DNA of 64,000 nt from Panorpa germanica (taxonomy: Eukaryota; Arthropoda; Insecta; Mecoptera; Panorpidae): assembly GCA_963678705.1 (NCBI GenBank), contig OY783217.1, positions 2,108,001 through 2,172,000 of the forward strand. Reading direction: 5' to 3'. Below, piece after piece: positions 3,801-53,762 of this stretch. Position numbers and translations under genes: made by a program. Under the pieces are notes generated by a model, which saw nothing but the letters and a program-made list of their open reading frames with translations, did not search any database and had not been told where the DNA came from. Position 1 is the stretch's first letter. Each line of letters opens with the position of its first letter.

Positions 3801-6356
3801 TCATAAATACTACCAATATTGTAGGTCATCATCATTGGTAAGACTGTACGCGGAAATAAGCCAATGTTAATTAAAAAAAACAACAAGTTTTTTTTTTAAT
3901 TTTGCTGCTACTTTTCCGTCATTAATAATTTTCATTGTTTCCATATCCTGTCACAAGTGGTTACTGTTTAATAACATAACGCACTGGTACATTTGATGGC
4001 TATTTCCGTTTTACATTAGTCCTCCTATCAGTCGACGTTCGAGTACATTTGAACTACTCATGCCAGCCAGTACTACGGTTTGTTTGAACGCAGAACACAT
4101 AAAACTCAAGTACAACTTGTCAGTGTCAATCACATGCTGGTGAAGACAGATAAAAATCTACTTGAGAGTCATCAAGTCATTATTAACATTGTTACAGTCG
4201 TAAATAAATATTCACTATTTAATAATTAAATAAATAATCATTGGATTATTAATAAAAATGGACATATGACCGAATGCATGTATTTATTTATTTCAAAACT
4301 AAAATTTATTCGGTAGAATTTTAGTACACTAAAAAACACTAACTGTAGGCATTGTCCTAAACAGTTCATTTGTTGCATAACATTTTTTAGTTTAATATAA
4401 TATAAGGTTATTCAGCAGAAGTTGACATTAAATTTAAAGCAGCCAAAGAATCGTAAATTGTCCATATCCTACTCGCTGTTGTTAAGTATTCACTCCGCCT
4501 AGATATACGTACTGACTAGCGAGTCCTAAAAACAATTACTGATCCATAATTTTGTATTTTATATCGTGATATACTTTTTCCTATGATTACTATTCCACCG
4601 TGAAACGTTAAAGTGTAAATAAACTTACATATAGTTCGGTTGTATTGAGTTCAGTCCTTAACTGAAGGTGAAATATGACAAATTGTCACAGTAGACCTTG
4701 AAATAACAAGTTATAATTTGTTAAAATTGTATCTCATAGCGCTAAAATAATTTGCTAAGCGTTCTTCATTTCATTTCATTAATCTTACTTACAAATATTA
4801 TTGATAGAACTTATTTTGATGATTGCCATTTATAGTTTAATAGTCGACGATACAAATTTGTTTGTAAATACGAGTAAAAACAATGTTTTGTGAGATTCAT
4901 TTTTATGATTTACAATTTTGATTTAATGTTCATGATTTTCATGAATTTTATTGAAGCATAAAATATTTAAAATAAAACTTTGTTCATTCTCATATACTCG
5001 TATTGTAAAAGTTTGTCTTTTTGTTTATCGATGCGACTCACAATCCCTAGATTATGTATATTTACTATTCATTGTTATTGCGATCGTAGAAAATTATATT
5101 TTATGATTTTCCATACATATATTTAAATTATTTCAAATATTTTGGGATATTGTATAAATAGATGTTAACTCATTATTCTGAAATATACTTCTTATTATAC
5201 AGGCATTGAAATAGTGATAAATAAATACCACAGGTACATATTTGCAAAGTTGTAGACCACAGTATATCTGCATTATAATTATCTTTGGTTGCATTTAAGA
5301 ACTATCTTAGTATTGAATTAGGTAAAGCGGGTACAATTTTACATATCACGCCCAAGTTTATTACAAAAGCAGTCAACATGGCATTGACTTTAATGAATGA
5401 AACGTGCAAGAGAAGAGAAGTGGGTGGAATGCCTATTTATCGGCATTCTATATAAATGAGTTTATTTATGGCGCCAACACAAGAGTTGCTTTTGAATCAA
5501 TCCGCACTAAAATGCTGCTTGTAGCTAGCTGAACGTATATATACTCATTCATTAAGTCTTTCGCGTTGACTGCTTTCCGCGCTGAGCTGTGGACGCTTAC
5601 CATTAATACACAGTTGCGGTAATTTGCGCATATTAATATTATTTAACACTAAGTTATTTATAAATGTATTAGTAGGTCATATATTGAACGAATCTCTAAT
5701 AGATCCACAACTGCGCCATTAAGCACCTGATAAACAATTAAAAATAGAAAAAAAACGGTCATAAATAATGAAAACTCAGCTGGAGGCAAAGAAATCATCC
5801 AAAATGTGTAGTAGTTATTTCTTTCGTAAATATTATTATGGGAATAATGGATTAAGTTTATATACTGTGATGAAATAATTACTCAAAAACATTAATTTAT
5901 TAACAAAACTCAAAATTATATAAGTTAAATAATAGTAATTATAGTAATAATGTATTTTAAAAACCTTTTAATTGAATTTGATTGAAATATTTAGGATATG
6001 TGCTCTCTACACACAGGCACGTATATATTAATTAGTAGCTATTAATTTGTTAGACAATACCATAAAACAAATTGATGAAAAAGCTAATACAGAATTCTAT
6101 ATATTATTTAATATGTCTGTAAGAATATCAGTTTTATTATACAACATAGTTTGAATAAAATGTTAGCAACAATGCAATCATGTTTTAAAAAACGCCAACA
6201 ATTTAAACTATTGAACCCAATTAACATTTTTAAATTAATTTGAAAATAATTAGTAAATAATGTAAAGATCGTGAGATCAAAATGATCTTCGAGTATAATT
6301 AGACAAAGTACTATTAAATTACAAAACTAATTTGGTTTAATTTAATAATGTATTGC
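3801..6356. other. AT-rich noncoding stretch
   Basis: No coding frame, tRNA or paired transposon ends recognised. All frames are broken by frequent stops. Short GC-richer words near 5400-5600 do not form a readable exon. Confidence 0.45.
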
Positions 6357-42458: not shown

Positions 42459-42930
42459 ATTTAATTAATTAATTAATTTTTTTATTAATAATTCACGGGC
42501 TTCCTAGGACCACGGTCCTTTTTTCTTAATTCATTTTAATTACATTTTGCATTTTTACATTTTATTTATTATTACACCTACACTTTTAAACCCGCTATAT
42601 TCCATATCCTGTCTATCACTAAGCACACTGGCCACCTCGGATATCTTACTAGTTCCTGCATACTCGTTGACAACACCACTCCATTTTTCACCAAACTCTT
42701 TACAAATCATTTCTGCAGGCCTCTGTTTCTGTACATTGGAAGATAAAATGTTCTGGATCTGCTATCCCTTCTCCACAATTGCACATATCTTCTTGTACCA
42801 AGTGATTTCTTTTAAGATGTGCCAATGCCCTTTATGGTCTACCCTCAGTCTCGAGATAAGTGATAACACTCTTCTCGGACCTTGTGTTTCCACCACCAAC
42901 GACGTCTACACACCAAAGACTGTAAATTGA
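42459..42930 (-). pseudogene. RNase H-type LINE ORF2 C-terminus and 3' tail (minus strand)
   Basis: Read on the minus strand: RALAHLKRNHLVQED, then CNCGEGIADPEHFIFQC, a CxC...H...C cluster equivalent to CRCGEEGSLDHIILGC in the intact LINE at 53.4 kb. After one frame change the coding resumes as ICKEFGEKWSGVVNEYAGTS and ends IINKM with a stop at 42555. The short 3' UTR holds GGACC-GT-GGTCC, a hairpin, and a (TTAA)n tail. The order is that of I/R1/LOA-type LINEs. It is 5'-truncated and frameshifted, and from a different subfamily than the intact element. The + strand frame 42547-42930 is merely antisense to it. Confidence 0.75.
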
Positions 42931-45998: not shown

Positions 45999-47479
45999 CC
46001 AACACTAGTACAAGTTTGTTTATGTTTTCATACAAATTAACATCTATCAATTTTCTGGTTGGTTGATTCTGCATTACTCACGTTGTTTAACACTTTATGG
46101 CTCCATGGACTTGTCGTAAGTAACTTTACTAACTTTAACTCCATCGTAAAGTTTTACACACACCTCTTGATGTACATAAAATCCTGTTTGCAGGACTTAA
46201 TCCTTTGTCATTGTTACTTATTGTCATTTGCTTACTTCAAACGGCTACTTAATGATAAGGATTTATCCTTTGATGGTAAATGAAGGATCGAAGAACGTCG
46301 TTAAATAATTTACATATGTGTAGGAGATAAGTTAGATAGTCAATTATTCGTACATCATGTATTGCACTGCTTCTGCGATGAACTACAATGCGAGAAACTA
46401 CTTATAGTACTTTAACACATCAGTCCGATCATATACCGAGTCCGAATAACACTTTTACTAAAAATCATGTGGATATGTTAACAGTGTCACAATTTATATA
46501 CCATCCTACGAGGTTATTGAGTGGTATGTTACAAACTAATGAGATGAAACTAATAACATCTTGTAAATAGAATTAATCAATCGAATACAATAAAAGTCAC
46601 TCGCGTCTAACAAATTTATATTCCGCAAACTGTTCCGCTATTAATCTCTTTGTAGTCTCGAATACCTTTAACTTTTTTTTAGATTATAAATGGTTTTTCT
46701 ACAAAACAACAATAAAAAAAAACTAAACGACTGGTGCCTTTTGTGTTGCAAATAGAACTGATTATATAGTGTCCTCCACGGTGCTCTGCAATGTGTTCTG
46801 TCGTTATATATTACTAGGAAATGTTTCCAGGGAATCCAATATTATTCCCGCTGTGATCCTGATACTGATACGTCGCTTCTCATCGCTAAAAATACGATTT
46901 CTTTACATCTGTATATATTTGAGACAATATTTCTTTATGTTCTGGGGTATCATATTTATATATATATACATATATATTGTGATCGATTTTGTATTGTATC
47001 GTTTTATATTTCATGTATTCTTTTCACACTCTGTGGACGTTGGGGGACCCAAGTTCGGAAAACCCAAGCTTTATATGCATGAAGCTATAATACAGGCCAC
47101 ATAAAATAACGTATGTTTTATTTATATAAAAATATGTCGTATTTATGTATATTTAAATAGAACAGAATATTTGATAAATTTTTAAAATGTAAATATAGCT
47201 TAAATAAATATTGTATATATTACACATCGTACAGCCTGACTTTGTACAGTATATTCACTAATAAACGTAACTGCTCCGTAAATATTATTTTTCTGGATTC
47301 AACAAATTCGTAAAATTTACGCATTCGTAGACCATCTGTAAAATTAAACCATATTAATCATAGTTAGTACTTGAAATAGATAATCAACTGAAAACATAGA
47401 TAAAACAGTGCTTTCTAAGCCTTTGTTTTTCTTGAACGGTATTTTTCCTCGTTTAAAAGTTGTGCTTTATCAACTGTAT
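45999..47479. other. AT-rich noncoding stretch
   Basis: No gene supported. An alternating TATATATACATATATA tract lies at about 46955-46978. The 111-codon + frame at 46769-47104 spans it and looks fortuitous. Confidence 0.4.
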
Positions 47480-47886
47480 TAAGAAATGTAACATCATATG
47501 CACTCAGATTTTCCAAAATAAAGTTCTGAGGAACATAGTGGCATAATGCACCATGGTATGTCCGCAATAGCGATATACATAGGGATCTCAAAGTAACTAC
47601 AGTAGCTGAAGAAATTACGAAAATAGCAGGAAAGCACGAGCAACTTCTCCAACACCATGTCAACGTGGAAGCGTTTCACCTGCTGTACACGGATGGACTG
47701 ACAAGAAGATTAAAGAGAACTAAGCCATTTGCGCTAGTATGATGACCGACAGAAAAAGAGTATCAACAATGGTTAATACTCTGACTTCAAAAATATTACC
47801 ATTATTAAAATTAACTAGAAAAAATGTTATTAGATAGTTTATATAAAGTAGTTATAACAATATAATAGGTTAAAAAAAAAAAAAAA
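47480..47886 (+). pseudogene. Jockey-clade LINE 3' end, frameshifted remnant
   Basis: Frame one (47502-47540) reads TQIFQNKVLRNIV. After a one-base frame change, frame two (47545-47742) reads NAPWYVRNSDIHRDLKVTTV, then AEEITKIAGKHEQLLQHHVN and TRRLKRTKPFALV with a stop. This is the canonical C-terminus of Jockey-clade reverse transcriptases (QNKxLRxIxxAPWYVRNxxIHRDL...RRLKRxxP). A 130-nt 3' UTR and a 15-A tail (47872-47886) follow. It is 5'-truncated, as most LINE insertions are. Nothing upstream of about 47480 could be read as RT. It is older than the intact LINE that begins 122 bp downstream. Confidence 0.85.
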
Positions 47887-47997: not shown

Positions 47998-48008
47998 ATA
48001 TTTATTAA
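47998..48008 (+). repeat. 5' target-site duplication of the LINE
   Basis: ATATTTATTAA, identical to 53752-53762 immediately after the A tail. The match is exactly 11 bp; the next bases (C and T) differ. This fixes the element start at 48009. Confidence 0.92.
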
Positions 48009-48210
48009 CAGTTTACATCGAGTCTTCTTGGTGAGCGCACGTATTTACAATAAACAAAACAATAAAATAAATAGTGATCTTTTTTTTTGCAAATTATAAT
48101 ATTTTTTTTCGTGATTTATTTTTATTTAAATTATAATTTATATTATTATTAAGTGTTATTAATAAGAAGTGAAGTAACTTCTATTTAATTATCACTGGTT
48201 AATTAACAAT
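48009..48210 (+). promoter_or_regulatory. LINE 5' UTR with presumed internal promoter
   Basis: The leader starts CAGTTTACATCGAGTC at the insertion junction. I-factor and Jockey-type elements begin with CAGT, which acts as an initiator so that the RNA starts at base 1 and carries its own promoter. GGTGAGCGCACG at +22 to +33 occupies the place of a downstream promoter element but does not match its consensus. The rest is AT-rich and has no upstream ATG frame of note. Confidence 0.6.
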
Positions 48211-49638
48211 ATGGATATGGAGGTTGAACCTCCCGATAAAAATCCGAACAATAAAAACAACTCTGTGACTAACAAAGCATTTCCTACAGATAAAACATCC
48301 AGTGATATAACAGAAAACTTAAATAACAATAGTGACAATGTTAAAAAAATATTTAATAATTTATACAACACAGAAACAAAATATGACTCGTATAAAGTAA
48401 TGATAGTTAAAAATAATAGTGATGGAAATACATTTTTTAGTTCTCTTAAATTAGCAGAAATAATTTGTAAAATTAGCAATAAATCTAATATAATAGAAAT
48501 TAAAAAAGTGGGAAGAAATAGAGTAATCGTTCAATGTGCTAATGCAGTACTAGCTAACGAAATTACCAAATCAACATTGCTGAAAAACAATGGGTATGAA
48601 GCGTTTATCCCATTTTACTGGTGCACAAAAGTTGCTATTATAAAAGGTGTTGATATTGAATATTCGGAAGATACAATTTTAAATAATATAGAGTGTCCAC
48701 CTTTTAAAGTAACGAGAGTGCAAAGGTTAAATCGAAAACTAAGAGTTGACGGAGCTATTAAATATGAACCCAGTACAACAGTGAAATTATTCTTTGAAGG
48801 ACTTGCTATTCCTGCTTATGTTTACATGTGGAGACTGAGACGAGCATGTGAACCATTTGTACAACAGACGATACAATGTTATAATTGTTTTAAATTTGGA
48901 CATGCAGCCACAAAATGTAGAGCAAAAGTAGCAAAATGTAAATTCTGCGGAAGTGAAGATCATTTACGTACTGCATGCACATCTCCTAATCCGACATGCA
49001 TAAATTGTAAACTTAACCACGAGGCTACAGACAATGAATGTCCTGAAAAAAAAAGACAAATCAAGATAAAAGATCTCATGGCCCAACACAATCTCAGTTT
49101 TTATGAAGCAAAATTAGAATTAACAGAAAAAAATACAGACTATTTATACTCAGTAAGAACTCAAAACTCTTTTGAAGCTCTAAACTACAATGAGACTTTT
49201 CCCAATATCACTAATAAATACAATAGTATCAACATAATTCCAACATACAAACCAAACCCTTTAACCAGAAGAACCAATACCAGAGTGAATAAATCAAATA
49301 CAGGTAACTCATTACAAAGATCTTACAGTCAACCACAACCTACGACATCCACTAAACAACCACTTCCAAAAAGAAGAAGAGAAGAAAAGAAACCTAACAA
49401 TGAAGAAAGTGACACATTCCTTAAGAAAACTAATCAAGAAAAAAACAGAAAGCAAATCAACCAAGAGAAACCTGATATTACAATGGAAAATTATGATAAT
49501 GATACCTGCTATAAATCAATATATAATAAAAATAATGATGACAAAATTAAAGATACAAACAAAGACCCTAATATTACATCCCAATCTCTTAGAAGCTACA
49601 AGAAACAAATATCTAGTGTACAATGGCCAAACTCGTAA
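48211..49638 (+). CDS. LINE ORF1, gag-like nucleic-acid-binding protein (475 aa)
   Basis: RNA-binding protein expected to package the LINE transcript into the ribonucleoprotein. The ATG context is ACAATATGG. Residues 1-60 are acidic and asparagine-rich. About 65-220 form the folded region that precedes zinc knuckles in I/Jockey gag proteins, with FYWCTKVAIIKGVDIEY near 134-150. Three zinc knuckles follow: C223-x2-C226-x4-H231-x4-C236, C243-x2-C246-x4-H251-x4-C256, and a variant C263-x2-C266-x3-H270-x6-C277. The C-terminal 170 residues are polar and disordered-looking, with a basic cluster KRRRE near 387-391 that could be a nuclear localisation signal. Length and three knuckles are typical of the family. 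ORF1 ends 197 nt before ORF2 in a different frame. Confidence 0.93.
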   Translation: MDMEVEPPDKNPNNKNNSVTNKAFPTDKTSSDITENLNNNSDNVKKIFNNLYNTETKYDSYKVMIVKNNSDGNTFFSSLKLAEIICKISNKSNIIEIKKVGRNRVIVQCANAVLANEITKSTLLKNNGYEAFIPFYWCTKVAIIKGVDIEYSEDTILNNIECPPFKVTRVQRLNRKLRVDGAIKYEPSTTVKLFFEGLAIPAYVYMWRLRRACEPFVQQTIQCYNCFKFGHAATKCRAKVAKCKFCGSEDHLRTACTSPNPTCINCKLNHEATDNECPEKKRQIKIKDLMAQHNLSFYEAKLELTEKNTDYLYSVRTQNSFEALNYNETFPNITNKYNSINIIPTYKPNPLTRRTNTRVNKSNTGNSLQRSYSQPQPTTSTKQPLPKRRREEKKPNNEESDTFLKKTNQEKNRKQINQEKPDITMENYDNDTCYKSIYNKNNDDKIKDTNKDPNITSQSLRSYKKQISSVQWPNS

Positions 49639-49835
49639 GAAAACATCAATATATAAATTAAGTTTATTTTTTAATAAAAACTCTATTCACATCACTAAAC
49701 CAAATCGGTTAATAAATTTACTAAAATATTAAATCAACAACAATTATATAAACATAAAGAAAAAATAAAATATATAAATAAATCGAAAAACAAGACATCA
49801 GATATAAAAATTAATCATTAATTAAAACAGTTAAA

Positions 49836-52800
49836 ATGATAAATTTTATTCAATGGAATTGCAGAGGAGTCAGATATATTAAAGAGGAACTACAACATAT
49901 GTTACAGAAGCATAACATACATATATGCATACTATCAGAAACGTTTTTAACAAAAAATCTCAATTTCAACATCAAAAGTTATTTTATTGAAAGAGAAGAT
50001 AGGATACAGAATACAAACTATAATCCCCACGGGGGTGTTGCTATTTTGATTCATAAATCTATAAAATATAAACGAGTAATGCTAAATAACCCATTTAATT
50101 CGGTCGAAATAGCTGGAATAATTTTAACACATAACGAAACTGATGTAATATGTATTTTATCAATCTATGCTAAACCGAATCATAAACTATCTAATTCTAA
50201 TTGGTCACAGATAAAACAACAAATAGATGTTCCTGTTATACTTGCTGGAGATTTTAACGCGACTAATCTTGCTTGGGATATAAATTGTCCAGGTAGTCAG
50301 TATGAAGGTAACGAATTGTTAGATTTCATAGAAAACGAAAATCTAAATATTATCAACGATGATAAACCAACTAGAGTAAGCAATCTCAGTACAAGGGACA
50401 GTATATTGGATCTCACATTGGTATCAATGACGTTAACACAACAAATTACTTCGTGGCAAGTTCTTGCAGATAGCTTAGGTAGTGATCACTACCCAATTTT
50501 TTTCTGTTTGAATGACTATAATAAAGACCGTTACCGTACATCTGAATATTTAACGAGGAGAAATTTCCGAAAAGCAGATTGGGAGAAATATAGCCTTGAA
50601 ATAGAAAGCAGAATTTCAAACCTTAGCACAAATGGAATCACAAGTAATCCCCAAGATGTTGAAAACAAATACAACCAATTTAGAGATGTTATTAATAATT
50701 CGGCAGACATACATATCCCATCTACCAGATTGTATAATATAACTCCTAATAAAATAAAACCGTCTTGGTGGGACACAGAGTGCAATAAAATGATAGCTCA
50801 AAGAAAATTAGCACTAACTATTTTTAATAAAAACATGACAATGGCGAATTATTTAAATTATAAAAAACATCAAGCTAAAACCAGACGATATTTTAGAGCC
50901 AGAAAAAAAATAGAATGGCAAAATTTCTGCGAGAATTTAAACCCAAACACAACAACCAACATTGTCTGGAATAATATAAGAAAAATTAACAATAAAAGCT
51001 ATAGTACTAAAAGGATAAGTGATAATGAAAATTTAATAGAAGAATTCATTAAAAAAAAATTTCCACAGAACAACAATTTAAATATTACTACCACCACCAT
51101 CGTAAAAGATAATTTTCTAGATAATAACATAAATAAAAATGAAGTAAAACTCGCGTTAAATCATAATAAAAACAGTAGCACAGGATTTGATAGAATAAAT
51201 TACAAAATGATACAAAACTTACCTGACAATGCAATAAATCATCTTACACAAATATATAATCTGTCATTAAACACTGCTGATATACCATTAGACTGGAAAA
51301 AACATATCGTTGTTCCTATATTAAAAACAGGAAAAGATCCAAACAAAGAAGAATCATTCAGACCAATTACTTTACTATCATGTATGGGCAAAACTATGGA
51401 ATCCATCATCAAAAACAGACTGGAGTGGTATCTCGAACATCATAAAAGATTACCTGAGTTACAATTTGCGTTTAGAAAAACAAGAAGTACACAGCATAAC
51501 TTAAACATATTGAATATCGATATTCAAAGAACATACAGTAAAAATCATTATATGATAGCTGCTTTCATTGACATTGAAGCTGCTTATGACAATGTTAATT
51601 TAAAAATATTAAAAGAAAAAGTAGAAAACATAGGTATATCTTCCAAAATATCCAACTGGATTATAAACTACTTCCAAAATAGAGAAATAACAGTTAGATA
51701 CAATAATAAGTTAACTGGTCCTATACTATGTAATCACGGAATTCCACAAGGCTCAATATTATCTCCCTTATTATTCAACATATACACAGAAAAGTTAACA
51801 ACATTATCAGATAACAACACAACAGTACTGATGTATGCAGATGACATGGTTATTTATAGTATGGGCCATACACAAGATATAGCTCAAAACAGATTACAAT
51901 CGAAATTAAGAAAACTAGATATTTTACTAAAGGAAATCAAATTAAATATATCGTCAGAAAAAAGTAAAATAGTTATATTTACAAGGCATAGAATAAACTG
52001 CAGTCCAAAAATAACCATCAGAAATAAAAATATAACTGTTAGTTCAAATACCAAATTTCTGGGTATATTCTTTGATACGAAAAGCACTTGGGCGAAAGAA
52101 ATTGCACATATTATTAACAAATGTCAAAAAGGCTTAAATTTGATGCGATGTATAGCAGGATACAAATGGGGCGCACACCCAACAACCTTAATAAAAATAT
52201 ATAAAGCTATTGTTAGACCGCATATTGACTATTCTAGTACTATGATCTGCACCGCAAATAACTCAAGATTAAAAAAAATTGAAATTATACAAAACAAATG
52301 TTTAAGAATAATATTAGGTGCAATGGTTTCAACACCAATCCAAATCCTCAACTATCAAACTAATATTCCTCCGGTAAATATCAGAATACAACAAATATCA
52401 GACAGTTTCTTTTGTAAAAACAGACATAACTCATGTGGCCCCTTAAATACAAGATTATCTAAACTATATGTTCTTTATAATAAACCATATTGGACAACTC
52501 ATAAAAAACCGGCACTTTTAACTAGTTTTGATAGATATAATAACTTGAACTTAGAGGTACACAACATTATACCTTTTTTCAAATTTCCATTAGAAATAAG
52601 CATGACAACAATACATACAGAAATAAATTTGTTCAAGAAGAATGACAGTAAGGAAATAACTTATCAAAAATATATGGAATATATAACAAAAGATGATATA
52701 AACTGGAGTATATGGTTTACCGATGGTTCATTCGAAAAAAACTCTAAAACTGGAGGAATTGGCATTTTCAATTATAATACAGATCAACAGTATAAATACA

Positions 52801-53564
52801 AACTTAACAACATCACAAATTCTTATAATACAGAAATAACAGCAATTATGAAATTACTAGAAATAATACAAAAAACTGACAATAAAAATATATTAATCTT
52901 CACAGATTCTCGTAGTGTTTGTGTATCTTTAAATAACAATAAATTCAAAAACAATAATAATAACAAAATATGTTCAATTAAAGAATATTTTTTAAAAATG
53001 GAAAAAAATGATATCAATGTTAAACTTATTTGGATTCCTGGACATGTAGGCATAAAAGGAAACGAAATGGCTGACAAACTGGCCAAAGAAGCTTGTGTAG
53101 ATGGGGAAATAATCGAAATAAATTGGTCAATAAATGATTCCAAAAAAATAATTAAAGAAAATTGTATGGCAGAATGGCAGAATATATATAATGAGAAAAG
53201 TCAAAGTACTGGAAAATTTTTTTTTGCAGCGAATCAAAAAATTCCAACAACCACATGGTTTAATAAAAACCATTCACGAAGATATATTTCAACAAATTGT
53301 CGAATGAAATCTGGGCATTCTAGATGTCCAGCTCATCTATACAAAATAAATATAAAAGACACACCAAATTGTAGATGTGGAGAAGAAGGTTCTTTGGACC
53401 ATATAATTCTAGGGTGTCATCTTTTAGCATCAAAAATTGATAGACTTTTAAATGATTTATGTAATGTAGCACAGTTCCCAGTTAATATGTCCTGTTTAAT
53501 GACAAGTGAAGCAACGGCGGAAATAGTAACAAACTTTGTGATAGAAAATAATATAGAAGTGTAA
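49836..53564 (+). CDS. LINE ORF2: AP endonuclease, reverse transcriptase, RNase H (1242 aa)
   Basis: Replication protein for target-primed reverse transcription. Endonuclease, about 1-225: N8 in QWNCRG, E35 in SETFLT, D139 and N141 in AGDFNAT, and S216-D217-H218, so the catalytic set is complete. RT, about 440-760: SSTGFDRINYKMI, FRPITLLSCMGK, D579 in FIDIEAAYD, GIPQGSILSPLL at 635-646, and YADD at 667-670. RNase H, about 955-1085: D963 (WFTDGS), E1000, D1024 (FTDSRS), H1070 (PGHVGIKGNE) and D1080, all present. A C-terminal cluster C1179-x-C1181-x7-H1189-x4-C1194 follows. The length is usual for I-type ORF2. No ribosome-slippage overlap with ORF1; translation by reinitiation, as proposed for I factors, is inferred. 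Confidence 0.96.
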   Translation: MINFIQWNCRGVRYIKEELQHMLQKHNIHICILSETFLTKNLNFNIKSYFIEREDRIQNTNYNPHGGVAILIHKSIKYKRVMLNNPFNSVEIAGIILTHNETDVICILSIYAKPNHKLSNSNWSQIKQQIDVPVILAGDFNATNLAWDINCPGSQYEGNELLDFIENENLNIINDDKPTRVSNLSTRDSILDLTLVSMTLTQQITSWQVLADSLGSDHYPIFFCLNDYNKDRYRTSEYLTRRNFRKADWEKYSLEIESRISNLSTNGITSNPQDVENKYNQFRDVINNSADIHIPSTRLYNITPNKIKPSWWDTECNKMIAQRKLALTIFNKNMTMANYLNYKKHQAKTRRYFRARKKIEWQNFCENLNPNTTTNIVWNNIRKINNKSYSTKRISDNENLIEEFIKKKFPQNNNLNITTTTIVKDNFLDNNINKNEVKLALNHNKNSSTGFDRINYKMIQNLPDNAINHLTQIYNLSLNTADIPLDWKKHIVVPILKTGKDPNKEESFRPITLLSCMGKTMESIIKNRLEWYLEHHKRLPELQFAFRKTRSTQHNLNILNIDIQRTYSKNHYMIAAFIDIEAAYDNVNLKILKEKVENIGISSKISNWIINYFQNREITVRYNNKLTGPILCNHGIPQGSILSPLLFNIYTEKLTTLSDNNTTVLMYADDMVIYSMGHTQDIAQNRLQSKLRKLDILLKEIKLNISSEKSKIVIFTRHRINCSPKITIRNKNITVSSNTKFLGIFFDTKSTWAKEIAHIINKCQKGLNLMRCIAGYKWGAHPTTLIKIYKAIVRPHIDYSSTMICTANNSRLKKIEIIQNKCLRIILGAMVSTPIQILNYQTNIPPVNIRIQQISDSFFCKNRHNSCGPLNTRLSKLYVLYNKPYWTTHKKPALLTSFDRYNNLNLEVHNIIPFFKFPLEISMTTIHTEINLFKKNDSKEITYQKYMEYITKDDINWSIWFTDGSFEKNSKTGGIGIFNYNTDQQYKYKLNNITNSYNTEITAIMKLLEIIQKTDNKNILIFTDSRSVCVSLNNNKFKNNNNNKICSIKEYFLKMEKNDINVKLIWIPGHVGIKGNEMADKLAKEACVDGEIIEINWSINDSKKIIKENCMAEWQNIYNEKSQSTGKFFFAANQKIPTTTWFNKNHSRRYISTNCRMKSGHSRCPAHLYKINIKDTPNCRCGEEGSLDHIILGCHLLASKIDRLLNDLCNVAQFPVNMSCLMTSEATAEIVTNFVIENNIEV

Positions 53565-53751
53565 TTTAAGTTAGATTATTTTATTTAGTATGTATTTAAT
53601 TTTAAGTTTAATTTTTTAAAAGAATCAATTTGTTTGTATTTATTAGAATAATTATAATTTATATGTAAATTTTTATATAATTTTACAAATAAAACCAATG
53701 GCAAGAAGGCTGAATAAGCCAAAGCCTAAATTAAATAAAAAAAAAAAAAAA
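53565..53751 (+). other. LINE 3' UTR, terminal hairpin and A tail
   Basis: 171 nt of AT-rich UTR contain AATAAA at 53688-53693 and 53734-53739. GGCT-GAATA-AGCC at 53708-53720 can form a short hairpin, followed by AAAGCC and then 15-16 As (53737 on). The RT of I/R2-like elements recognises 3' UTR RNA structure, so the hairpin is a candidate priming signal. Similar GCC-rich hairpins end three or four other LINE fragments in this window. Confidence 0.75.
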
Positions 53752-53762
53752 ATATTTATTAA
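53752..53762 (+). repeat. 3' target-site duplication of the LINE
   Basis: ATATTTATTAA directly after the A tail, identical to 47998-48008. The first A may equally be counted in the tail. Confidence 0.92.

What the first reader, a model, noticed from the sequence alone, without database searches (positions are those of the whole stretch)
48009..53751. Intact, probably young I-type LINE with exact 11-bp target duplication
Both ORFs are open end to end, every catalytic residue of the endonuclease, RT and RNase H is present, the 5' end starts with CAGT and the target duplication is perfect. In a window where every other retroelement is a decayed 3' fragment, this one could be a live source copy. 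The pre-insertion site can be predicted from the flanks: CCTTTATATTTATTAATCTA.
Basis: partly seen in the sequence, partly recalled or inferred. Interest (0 to 1): 0.7.

Follow-up and report, generated by a model that had tools for sequence, protein, structure and literature searches.

The report
Young burst of full-length LINE retrotransposons
The window holds one intact copy of a jumping gene of the LINE kind that has recently spread to hundreds of nearly identical copies in its host genome, a large share of them full length; it is a well-made example of a known kind rather than something new.

Summary
Window 48009-53751 is a complete LINE: 202-nt 5' UTR, ORF1 (475 aa, three CCHC knuckles), 197-nt ATG-free spacer, ORF2 (1,242 aa: APE endonuclease, RT, RNase H), 171-nt 3' UTR, poly(A) tail and a 10-11-bp target duplication. 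The host genome holds 453 near-exact 5' ends and 648 near-exact 3' ends. Of the 40 best matches, 37 are full length with their own duplications, differ by 0.50% on average, and 27 keep both ORFs. Two pairs at different sites are identical over 5.7 kb. Three paralogous empty sites confirm the insertion mode. A lone live source copy is not supported: the window copy is one leaf of a burst, with four private missense substitutions absent from the other 36 copies. Also seen: mosaic copies and a high full-length share. RNase H fits the I group but is not unique to it; clade membership was not testable. Verdict: new member of a known kind.

The parts
47998..48008 (.). 5' copy of the target-site duplication ATATTTATTAA
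   Evidence: sequence; TSD scan of 37 copies with cross-pair control
48009..48210 (+). 5' UTR of 202 nt, beginning CAGT, without any ATG; the 30-mer 48012-48041 is found at 453 sites genome-wide with up to 2 mismatches
48211..49638 (+). ORF1, 475 aa, with three CCHC zinc knuckles (aa 223-236, 243-256, 263-277); presumed RNA-binding gag-like protein
   Evidence: zf-CCHC is only a sub-threshold Pfam match
49639..49835 (+). 197-nt spacer between the ORFs, ATG-free in 37 of 37 full-length copies
49836..53564 (+). ORF2, 1,242 aa: APE-type endonuclease (aa 5-222), reverse transcriptase (aa 503-744), RNase H (aa 959-1087), C-terminal Cys/His motif read by eye
53565..53735 (+). 3' UTR of 171 nt; the 30-mer 53695-53724 is found at 648 sites genome-wide with up to 2 mismatches
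53736..53751 (+). poly(A) tail (end not separable from the first A of the duplication)
   Evidence: tails of 37 copies
53752..53762 (.). 3' copy of the target-site duplication

Best explanation
This is one recent insertion of a high-copy, currently or very recently active APE-type LINE that carries RNase H and fits the I group. The likely cycle is as follows. RNA polymerase II transcribes from an internal promoter at the CAGT start, giving a two-ORF polyadenylated RNA. ORF1 is translated first, and ORF2 by re-initiation at the first AUG after the ORF1 stop. ORF1 protein coats the RNA. ORF2 protein nicks an AT-rich target and primes reverse transcription on the poly(A). It often reaches the 5' end, and second-strand nicking leaves duplications mostly of 12-13 bp. 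During the burst, copies exchange segments, most simply by the reverse transcriptase switching between co-packaged RNAs, which gives mosaic copies. Shown: the anatomy, the counts of near-exact ends, the near-identity of the sampled copies, the duplications, the empty sites and the mosaic pattern. Inferred: promoter, re-initiation, RNA packaging, and template switching as the cause of the mosaics. The window copy is a leaf of this burst, not a demonstrated source.
For: Domains in order. 453 5' ends and 648 3' ends, with 0 matches of the reversed patterns. On C1 up to 6.83 Mb, 18 of 19 exact 5' ends have a 3' end (0-1 mismatch) on the same strand within 12 kb, 14 of them at 5,671-5,700 bp (from the lists). 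37 of 40 fetched copies are full length. Mean divergence 0.50%; two pairs identical over the body at different sites. 27 of 37 with both ORFs open. Coding variants shared by two or more copies are 35 synonymous to 28 non-synonymous, against about 0.22 to 0.73 expected for unselected change; singletons are 79 to 143 plus 3 stops, so coding function was kept in the lineages that copied. Paralogous empty sites: 311/318, 293/299 and 293/298 identities across the joined site. Mosaicism: 359 of 2,016 informative-site pairs incompatible, with neighbouring sites less incompatible than in any of 2,000 random orders; six separate intervals when each of the four combinations must occur in two or more copies.
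Against: No RNA, piRNA or population data, so present-day activity is not shown. The 37 copies are the best matches to the window copy over its first 2 kb, so they over-represent young, intact, full-length copies. The genome-wide counts do not have that bias, but the two patterns need not mutate alike and an isolated 5' end is not a full-length copy. Gene conversion or recurrent mutation could explain part of the mosaicism. A search for older, diverged relatives did not complete, so whether the family is an old resident or a newcomer is open.
Confidence: 0.9

Rival explanations
1. The window copy is itself a live source ('master') copy of the family.
For: Both ORFs are open and the catalytic residues are present; only four private substitutions, an ordinary number, since 32 of 37 copies have at least one private non-synonymous change.
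Against: All four private substitutions are missense and 36 of 36 other full-length copies have another residue at those codons, so none of these descends from it. At ORF2 codon 48 a second family with about 46% protein identity has the residue of the other 36 copies. Hundreds of other copies exist, most of which were not read.
Confidence: 0.08
2. The many near-identical copies are segmental duplications or assembly duplicates, not independent insertions.
For: One pair, L045/L046, is a duplicated stretch with the same flank.
Against: Each of the 37 full-length copies has its own target duplication. In the comparison of their flanks the pairs that matched did so as shared repeats, partial or offset. 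Three paralogous empty sites were found.
Confidence: 0.02
3. The mosaic copies arose by gene conversion between genomic copies or by recurrent mutation, not by template switching during reverse transcription.
For: Hundreds of near-identical templates are present. Some incompatible pairs involve very near sites, such as 48248 and 48277. With only the commoner variants (minor count at least 3 or 4) the rise with distance is uneven, dipping at 2-3.5 kb.
Against: With minor count at least 2, incompatibility rises with distance (0.12 under 300 bp to 0.33 over 3.5 kb). Neighbouring sites are less incompatible than in random orders: 0, 8 and 2 of 2,000 orders reach the observed value at minor counts of at least 2, 3 and 4. 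Recurrent mutation would not give this. Gene conversion is not excluded.
Confidence: 0.35

Closest known systems
Drosophila melanogaster I factor (I clade)
   Same: Two ORFs; three Cys/His motifs in ORF1; ORF2 with APE endonuclease, RT, RNase H and a C-terminal Cys/His motif (figure legend of PMC2881922, passages seen); 5' end CAGT and an internal promoter there (recalled).
Juan-A of Aedes aegypti (jockey clade, recalled)
   Same: Recent burst of a mosquito LINE with hundreds of full-length, highly similar copies: 663 full-length or nearly so, 378 of them in the 99% column of the paper's table (PMC1947958, passages).
   Different: A different LINE clade, published, in a named host.
[quoted passage not shown]
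   Same: The I group is listed as carrying RNase H, with conserved D-E-D-H/R-D (PMC4640811, passages); all five residues are present here.
   Different: R1 inserts into rDNA (recalled); the insertions here are at varied AT-rich sites. Which of these clades is closest could not be tested. [quoted passage not shown]
Mouse L1 mosaic families
   Same: Recombination between LINE lineages along the element, with strand switching by the reverse transcriptase one of three proposed mechanisms (PMC3600994, passages).
   Different: There between families over millions of years; here within one sampled set differing by about 0.5%.
Second LINE family in the same genome (L019:2793-6443)
   Same: ORF2 with the same domain order, about 46% protein identity, no stop over the 1,237 codons read.
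   Different: A separate family, here apparently lying inside a copy of the window's family.

Membership tests
APE-type non-LTR retrotransposon (LINE) | APE endonuclease plus RT in one ORF, no LTRs | tested here: met
   Pfam PF14529/PF03372 and PF00078 in ORF2; the longest direct repeat around the element is 37 nt (20 largest of 27 families shown)
APE-type non-LTR retrotransposon (LINE) | Insertion by target-primed reverse transcription: 3' tail, target duplication, variable sites | tested here: met
   A-tails and duplications in 37 of 37 full-length copies, 4 of them in TA repeats where the length is ambiguous; three empty sites
I group (Ingi, I, Nimb, Loa, R1, Tad1, Loner, Outcast) | RNase H with D-E-D-H-D (here downstream of RT); necessary-type feature, not unique: also reported in plant L1, Proto1, Dualen/RandI | tested here: met
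   PF00075 at aa 959-1087; D963, E1000, D1024, H1070, D1080 in 37 of 37 copies; list of clades from PMC4640811 (passages)
I group (Ingi, I, Nimb, Loa, R1, Tad1, Loner, Outcast) | RT-domain phylogeny within the group | not testable with these tools
   No named eukaryotic LINE references were at hand; the viral-contig scan returned no relative. The best solved-structure match of the endonuclease is TRAS1, weakly (E 0.011); that TRAS1 is of the R1 clade is recalled.
I clade (I factor) | ORF1 with three Cys/His motifs; ORF2 APE-RT-RNase H-Cys/His | tested here: met
   anatomy from PMC2881922 (passages). These features are not unique to the I clade.
I clade (I factor) | RT tree next to the I factor rather than Nimb, Loa, R1 or Outcast | not testable with these tools
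   no references available
I clade (I factor) | TAA-repeat 3' end as in the Drosophila I factor (recalled; not taken as defining for all members) | tested here: not met
   tails end in A-runs in 37 of 37 copies
Site-specific R1-like elements | insertion in rRNA genes or another fixed site | tested here: not met
   33 sites outside TA repeats show no shared motif beyond AT richness; no Rfam match in the 5 loci examined of the 48 held

The most novel reading that the evidence does not exclude
Within an ongoing burst, the RNase H-bearing reverse transcriptase of this family both reaches the 5' end in most insertions and often switches between co-packaged RNAs. The family then evolves as a recombining population of RNAs rather than as a tree from a few master copies, even over divergences of only 0.5%.
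Probability: 0.25. Interest if true: 0.5.

Novelty: new member of a known kind. Interest (0 to 1): 0.32.

Why it matters
A family with hundreds of young insertions, many full length and separately marked, is a good natural data set for measuring LINE processivity and recombination. It is also a likely source of recent insertion polymorphism in its host. As a kind of element it is ordinary; the useful parts are the high full-length share and the mosaicism within the burst.

Tried and rejected
A chimeric origin of L019 was considered, because its first 2,050 nt are ours and the rest is a second family. It is rejected as the likely reading because an exact copy of our 3'-end 30-mer lies on the same strand at C9:2223656-2223685, about 4.4 kb further than expected. 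That fits a second-family element inserted into a copy of ours. The junction itself was not read, and that 3' end could belong to another copy.

Target specificity was looked for and not found. The absence of A at position -1 of the duplication is produced by the poly(A) tail; position -1 is T or C in 30 of 33.

An AlphaFold model of ORF1 from a single sequence was useless (mean pLDDT 31.7) and was not searched further. A viral-contig scan returned no relative. A phage-collection search gave one weak RT match, 28% identity over 18% of the query, in a record named as an Enterococcus phage, not pursued. NCBIfam matches of ORF2 were all far below their cut-offs. Pfam scans of ten other open frames of the window gave one match, below its cut-off. 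Paper searches were seen as listings with the starts of abstracts. Passages were seen of PMC2881922, PMC11203168, PMC4640811, PMC2861651, PMC1947958 and PMC3600994; no paper was read whole.

In the empty-site script (37 joined sites) a fourth, more diverged case was L044 in L025 (86% over 281 positions with gaps). L018 in L034 was short (69 positions), L011 matched its own flank inverted, and L009, L026, L032 and L033 matched only their own 3' flank. None of these is counted.

Left undone: a search of the host genome with the RT protein and with the joined flanks of the window insertion. The server did not complete either.
Full report
What is there. Window 48009-53751 is a complete two-ORF LINE: 5' UTR of 202 nt, ORF1 of 475 aa, spacer of 197 nt, ORF2 of 1,242 aa, 3' UTR of 171 nt and a poly(A) tail. 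Pfam finds the APE endonuclease, the RT and RNase H in ORF2. ORF1 has no Pfam match at E 0.001; its three CCHC knuckles are read from the sequence. The best RT matches among solved structures are L1 and R2 proteins, and the best for the endonuclease is TRAS1, weakly (E 0.011). Neither the 5' UTR nor the spacer of the window copy holds an ATG. Among 37 full-length copies the spacer is ATG-free in 37 and the 5' UTR in 36. So the ORF2 start is the first ATG after the ORF1 stop, which fits re-initiation. This is suggestive only: the spacer holds 9 G in 197 nt and its own dinucleotides allow no ATG, a resampled 5' UTR lacks ATG in 7% of cases, and segments of spacer length across the element lack ATG in 1.8% of cases.

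The family. The window lies in a held genome of 464 Mb in 249 contigs. A search with the first 2 kb gave 717 first-look candidates, of which the 40 best were scored, all at 99% identity or more. A search with the last 1 kb gave 866 candidates, 40 scored, all at 99% or more. By my comparison of the two lists 26 of these 40 are loci already among the first 40. Of the other 14, two on C1 and C2 have an exact 5' end at the expected distance in the list; the rest could not be judged from that capped list. Counting 30-mers with up to 2 mismatches gives 453 sites for the 5' end and 648 for the 3' end, with 0 for the reversed patterns, a ratio of 0.70. On contig C1 up to 6.83 Mb, 18 of the 19 exact 5' ends have a 3' end (0-1 mismatch) on the same strand: 14 at 5,671-5,700 bp, one at 5.2 kb, and three at 7.5-9.5 kb that suggest later insertions; one has none. 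The 21 listed 3' ends of that stretch include 18 with an exact 5' end (from the lists). In this stretch most copies are therefore full length, against the usual picture of mainly 5'-truncated LINE copies (stated in PMC2861651 and PMC1947958, passages). Both of those papers themselves describe exceptions.

Age and integrity. I fetched all 40 copies scored, the window copy among them. 37 run from within 3 nt of the CAGT start to the tail. The other three are L019 (interrupted) and L045/L046 (a duplicated stretch whose match ends at element position 3918). These three were dropped before the counts below. The 37 differ by 0.50% on average and 1.12% at most, gaps ignored. L011 and L014 are identical over the whole body, as are L015 and L016, at different sites with different duplications. 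27 of 37 keep both ORFs; of the ten others, nine have a changed ORF2 and one a broken ORF1. The window copy is 0.14% from its nearest relatives. It has four private substitutions, one in ORF1 and three in ORF2, all missense, with another residue in 36 of 36 other copies. Private non-synonymous changes are ordinary here: 32 of 37 copies have at least one. With a recalled insect mutation rate of about 3e-9 per site per generation, four changes in 5.7 kb correspond to some 0.2 million generations at most, and an identical pair to less than about 0.1 million. These are hand calculations and rough.

Selection. Coding variants shared by two or more copies are 35 synonymous to 28 non-synonymous with no stops. 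Singletons are 79 to 143 with 3 stops. The expectation without selection is about 0.22 to 0.73 to 0.05. Coding function was thus kept in the copying lineages and is relaxed, not absent, among singletons.

Insertion. In the 33 copies outside TA microsatellites the duplication is 10-16 nt, mostly 12-13; in four of them the match runs 1-3 nt into the element, which lengthens it. All 33 have at least 10 nt exact, against 2 of 1,056 mismatched pairs. Three insertions lie in copies of one interspersed repeat, so each other's flanks show the empty site: L020 in L037 (311/318), L037 in L039 (293/299), L039 in L037 (293/298). Nine of 33 copies have 1-4 extra bases between duplication and element, four of them 'CA'. 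In L020 and L037 the extra CA is absent from the empty site, so it was added during insertion or belongs to the RNA. Sites are AT-rich with no fixed motif.

Mosaicism. Among 35 distinct copies, 359 of 2,016 pairs of informative sites (minor count at least 2) show all four combinations. Incompatibility rises from 0.12 for pairs under 300 bp apart to 0.33 for pairs over 3.5 kb. Neighbouring sites are less incompatible than in any of 2,000 random orders (0.118 against 0.179, sd 0.020). With minor count at least 3 or 4, 8 and 2 of 2,000 orders reach the observed value, and the rise with distance is uneven, with a dip at 2-3.5 kb and the highest values (0.74 and 0.87) over 3.5 kb. The minimum number of exchange intervals is 15, 9, 8 and 7 for minor counts of at least 2, 3, 4 and 5. 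With minor count at least 4 it is six if each combination must occur in two or more copies, and three if in three or more. One 3' block (53390-53649) occurs with three different 5' backgrounds and with different left and right ends. I read this as exchange between lineages copying at the same time. Template switching is the simplest mechanism, but gene conversion is not excluded. The sample was chosen by similarity over the first 2 kb, which favours seeing variety at the 3' end.

Filing. The element works like an I factor in anatomy and inferred cycle. [quoted passage not shown] Whether it belongs to the I clade itself, or to Nimb, Outcast or another RNase H-bearing clade, was not testable without named references. 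Bursts of this size and youth are known, for example Juan-A (PMC1947958, passages), and LINE mosaics are known from mouse L1 (PMC3600994, passages). I therefore score it as a new member of a known kind.

Limits. The RT-protein search for older relatives and the empty-site search for the window insertion did not complete. No expression, population or sister-species data were at hand.

Noticed in passing
L019:2352-6501 (G000:C9): A second LINE family with an ORF2 about 46% identical at protein level and without stops over the 1,237 codons read, apparently inserted into a copy of the window's family.
   Followed up: partly
L045 and L046 (G000:C6:22.738-22.752 Mb): Two copies in opposite orientation, their inner ends about 6 kb apart, with the same flank, 99.9% identical over 4.75 kb and both ending at element position 3918: an inverted segmental duplication of an interrupted copy.
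   Followed up: partly
G000:C1:6.27-6.98 Mb: Eleven exact 5' ends of the family lie within about 0.7 Mb (list), so insertions look clustered; not tested against chance, chromatin context unknown.
   Followed up: no
L020, L037, L039 flanks: Three insertions lie in copies (about 98% identical) of one interspersed repeat, at different points and in both orientations; the repeat was not identified and has no Rfam match.
   Followed up: partly
window 53695-53724 and genome-wide: 84 of 648 3'-end sites match the window's 30-mer exactly (counted in the list), so most copies carry at least one variant there; the window copy belongs to a minority 3' type.
   Followed up: partly
window 47380-47760: Decayed LINE-like 3' end of RT sequence just upstream of the insertion, in more than one frame (read by eye).
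   Followed up: no
window 42703-42879, - strand: Weak match (29% over 59 aa, E 0.017) to the C-terminal part of the second family's ORF2; may be chance or an old LINE remnant.
   Followed up: no
L010 flanks: Both flanks of the L010 insertion match the RT region of the second family's ORF2 at 28-32% (E 2e-6 and 9e-8), so this copy seems to sit inside another LINE.
   Followed up: no
phage record OR846638.1, 9238-9912: A record named as an Enterococcus phage holds an RT-like stretch 28% identical to part of ORF2.
   Followed up: no
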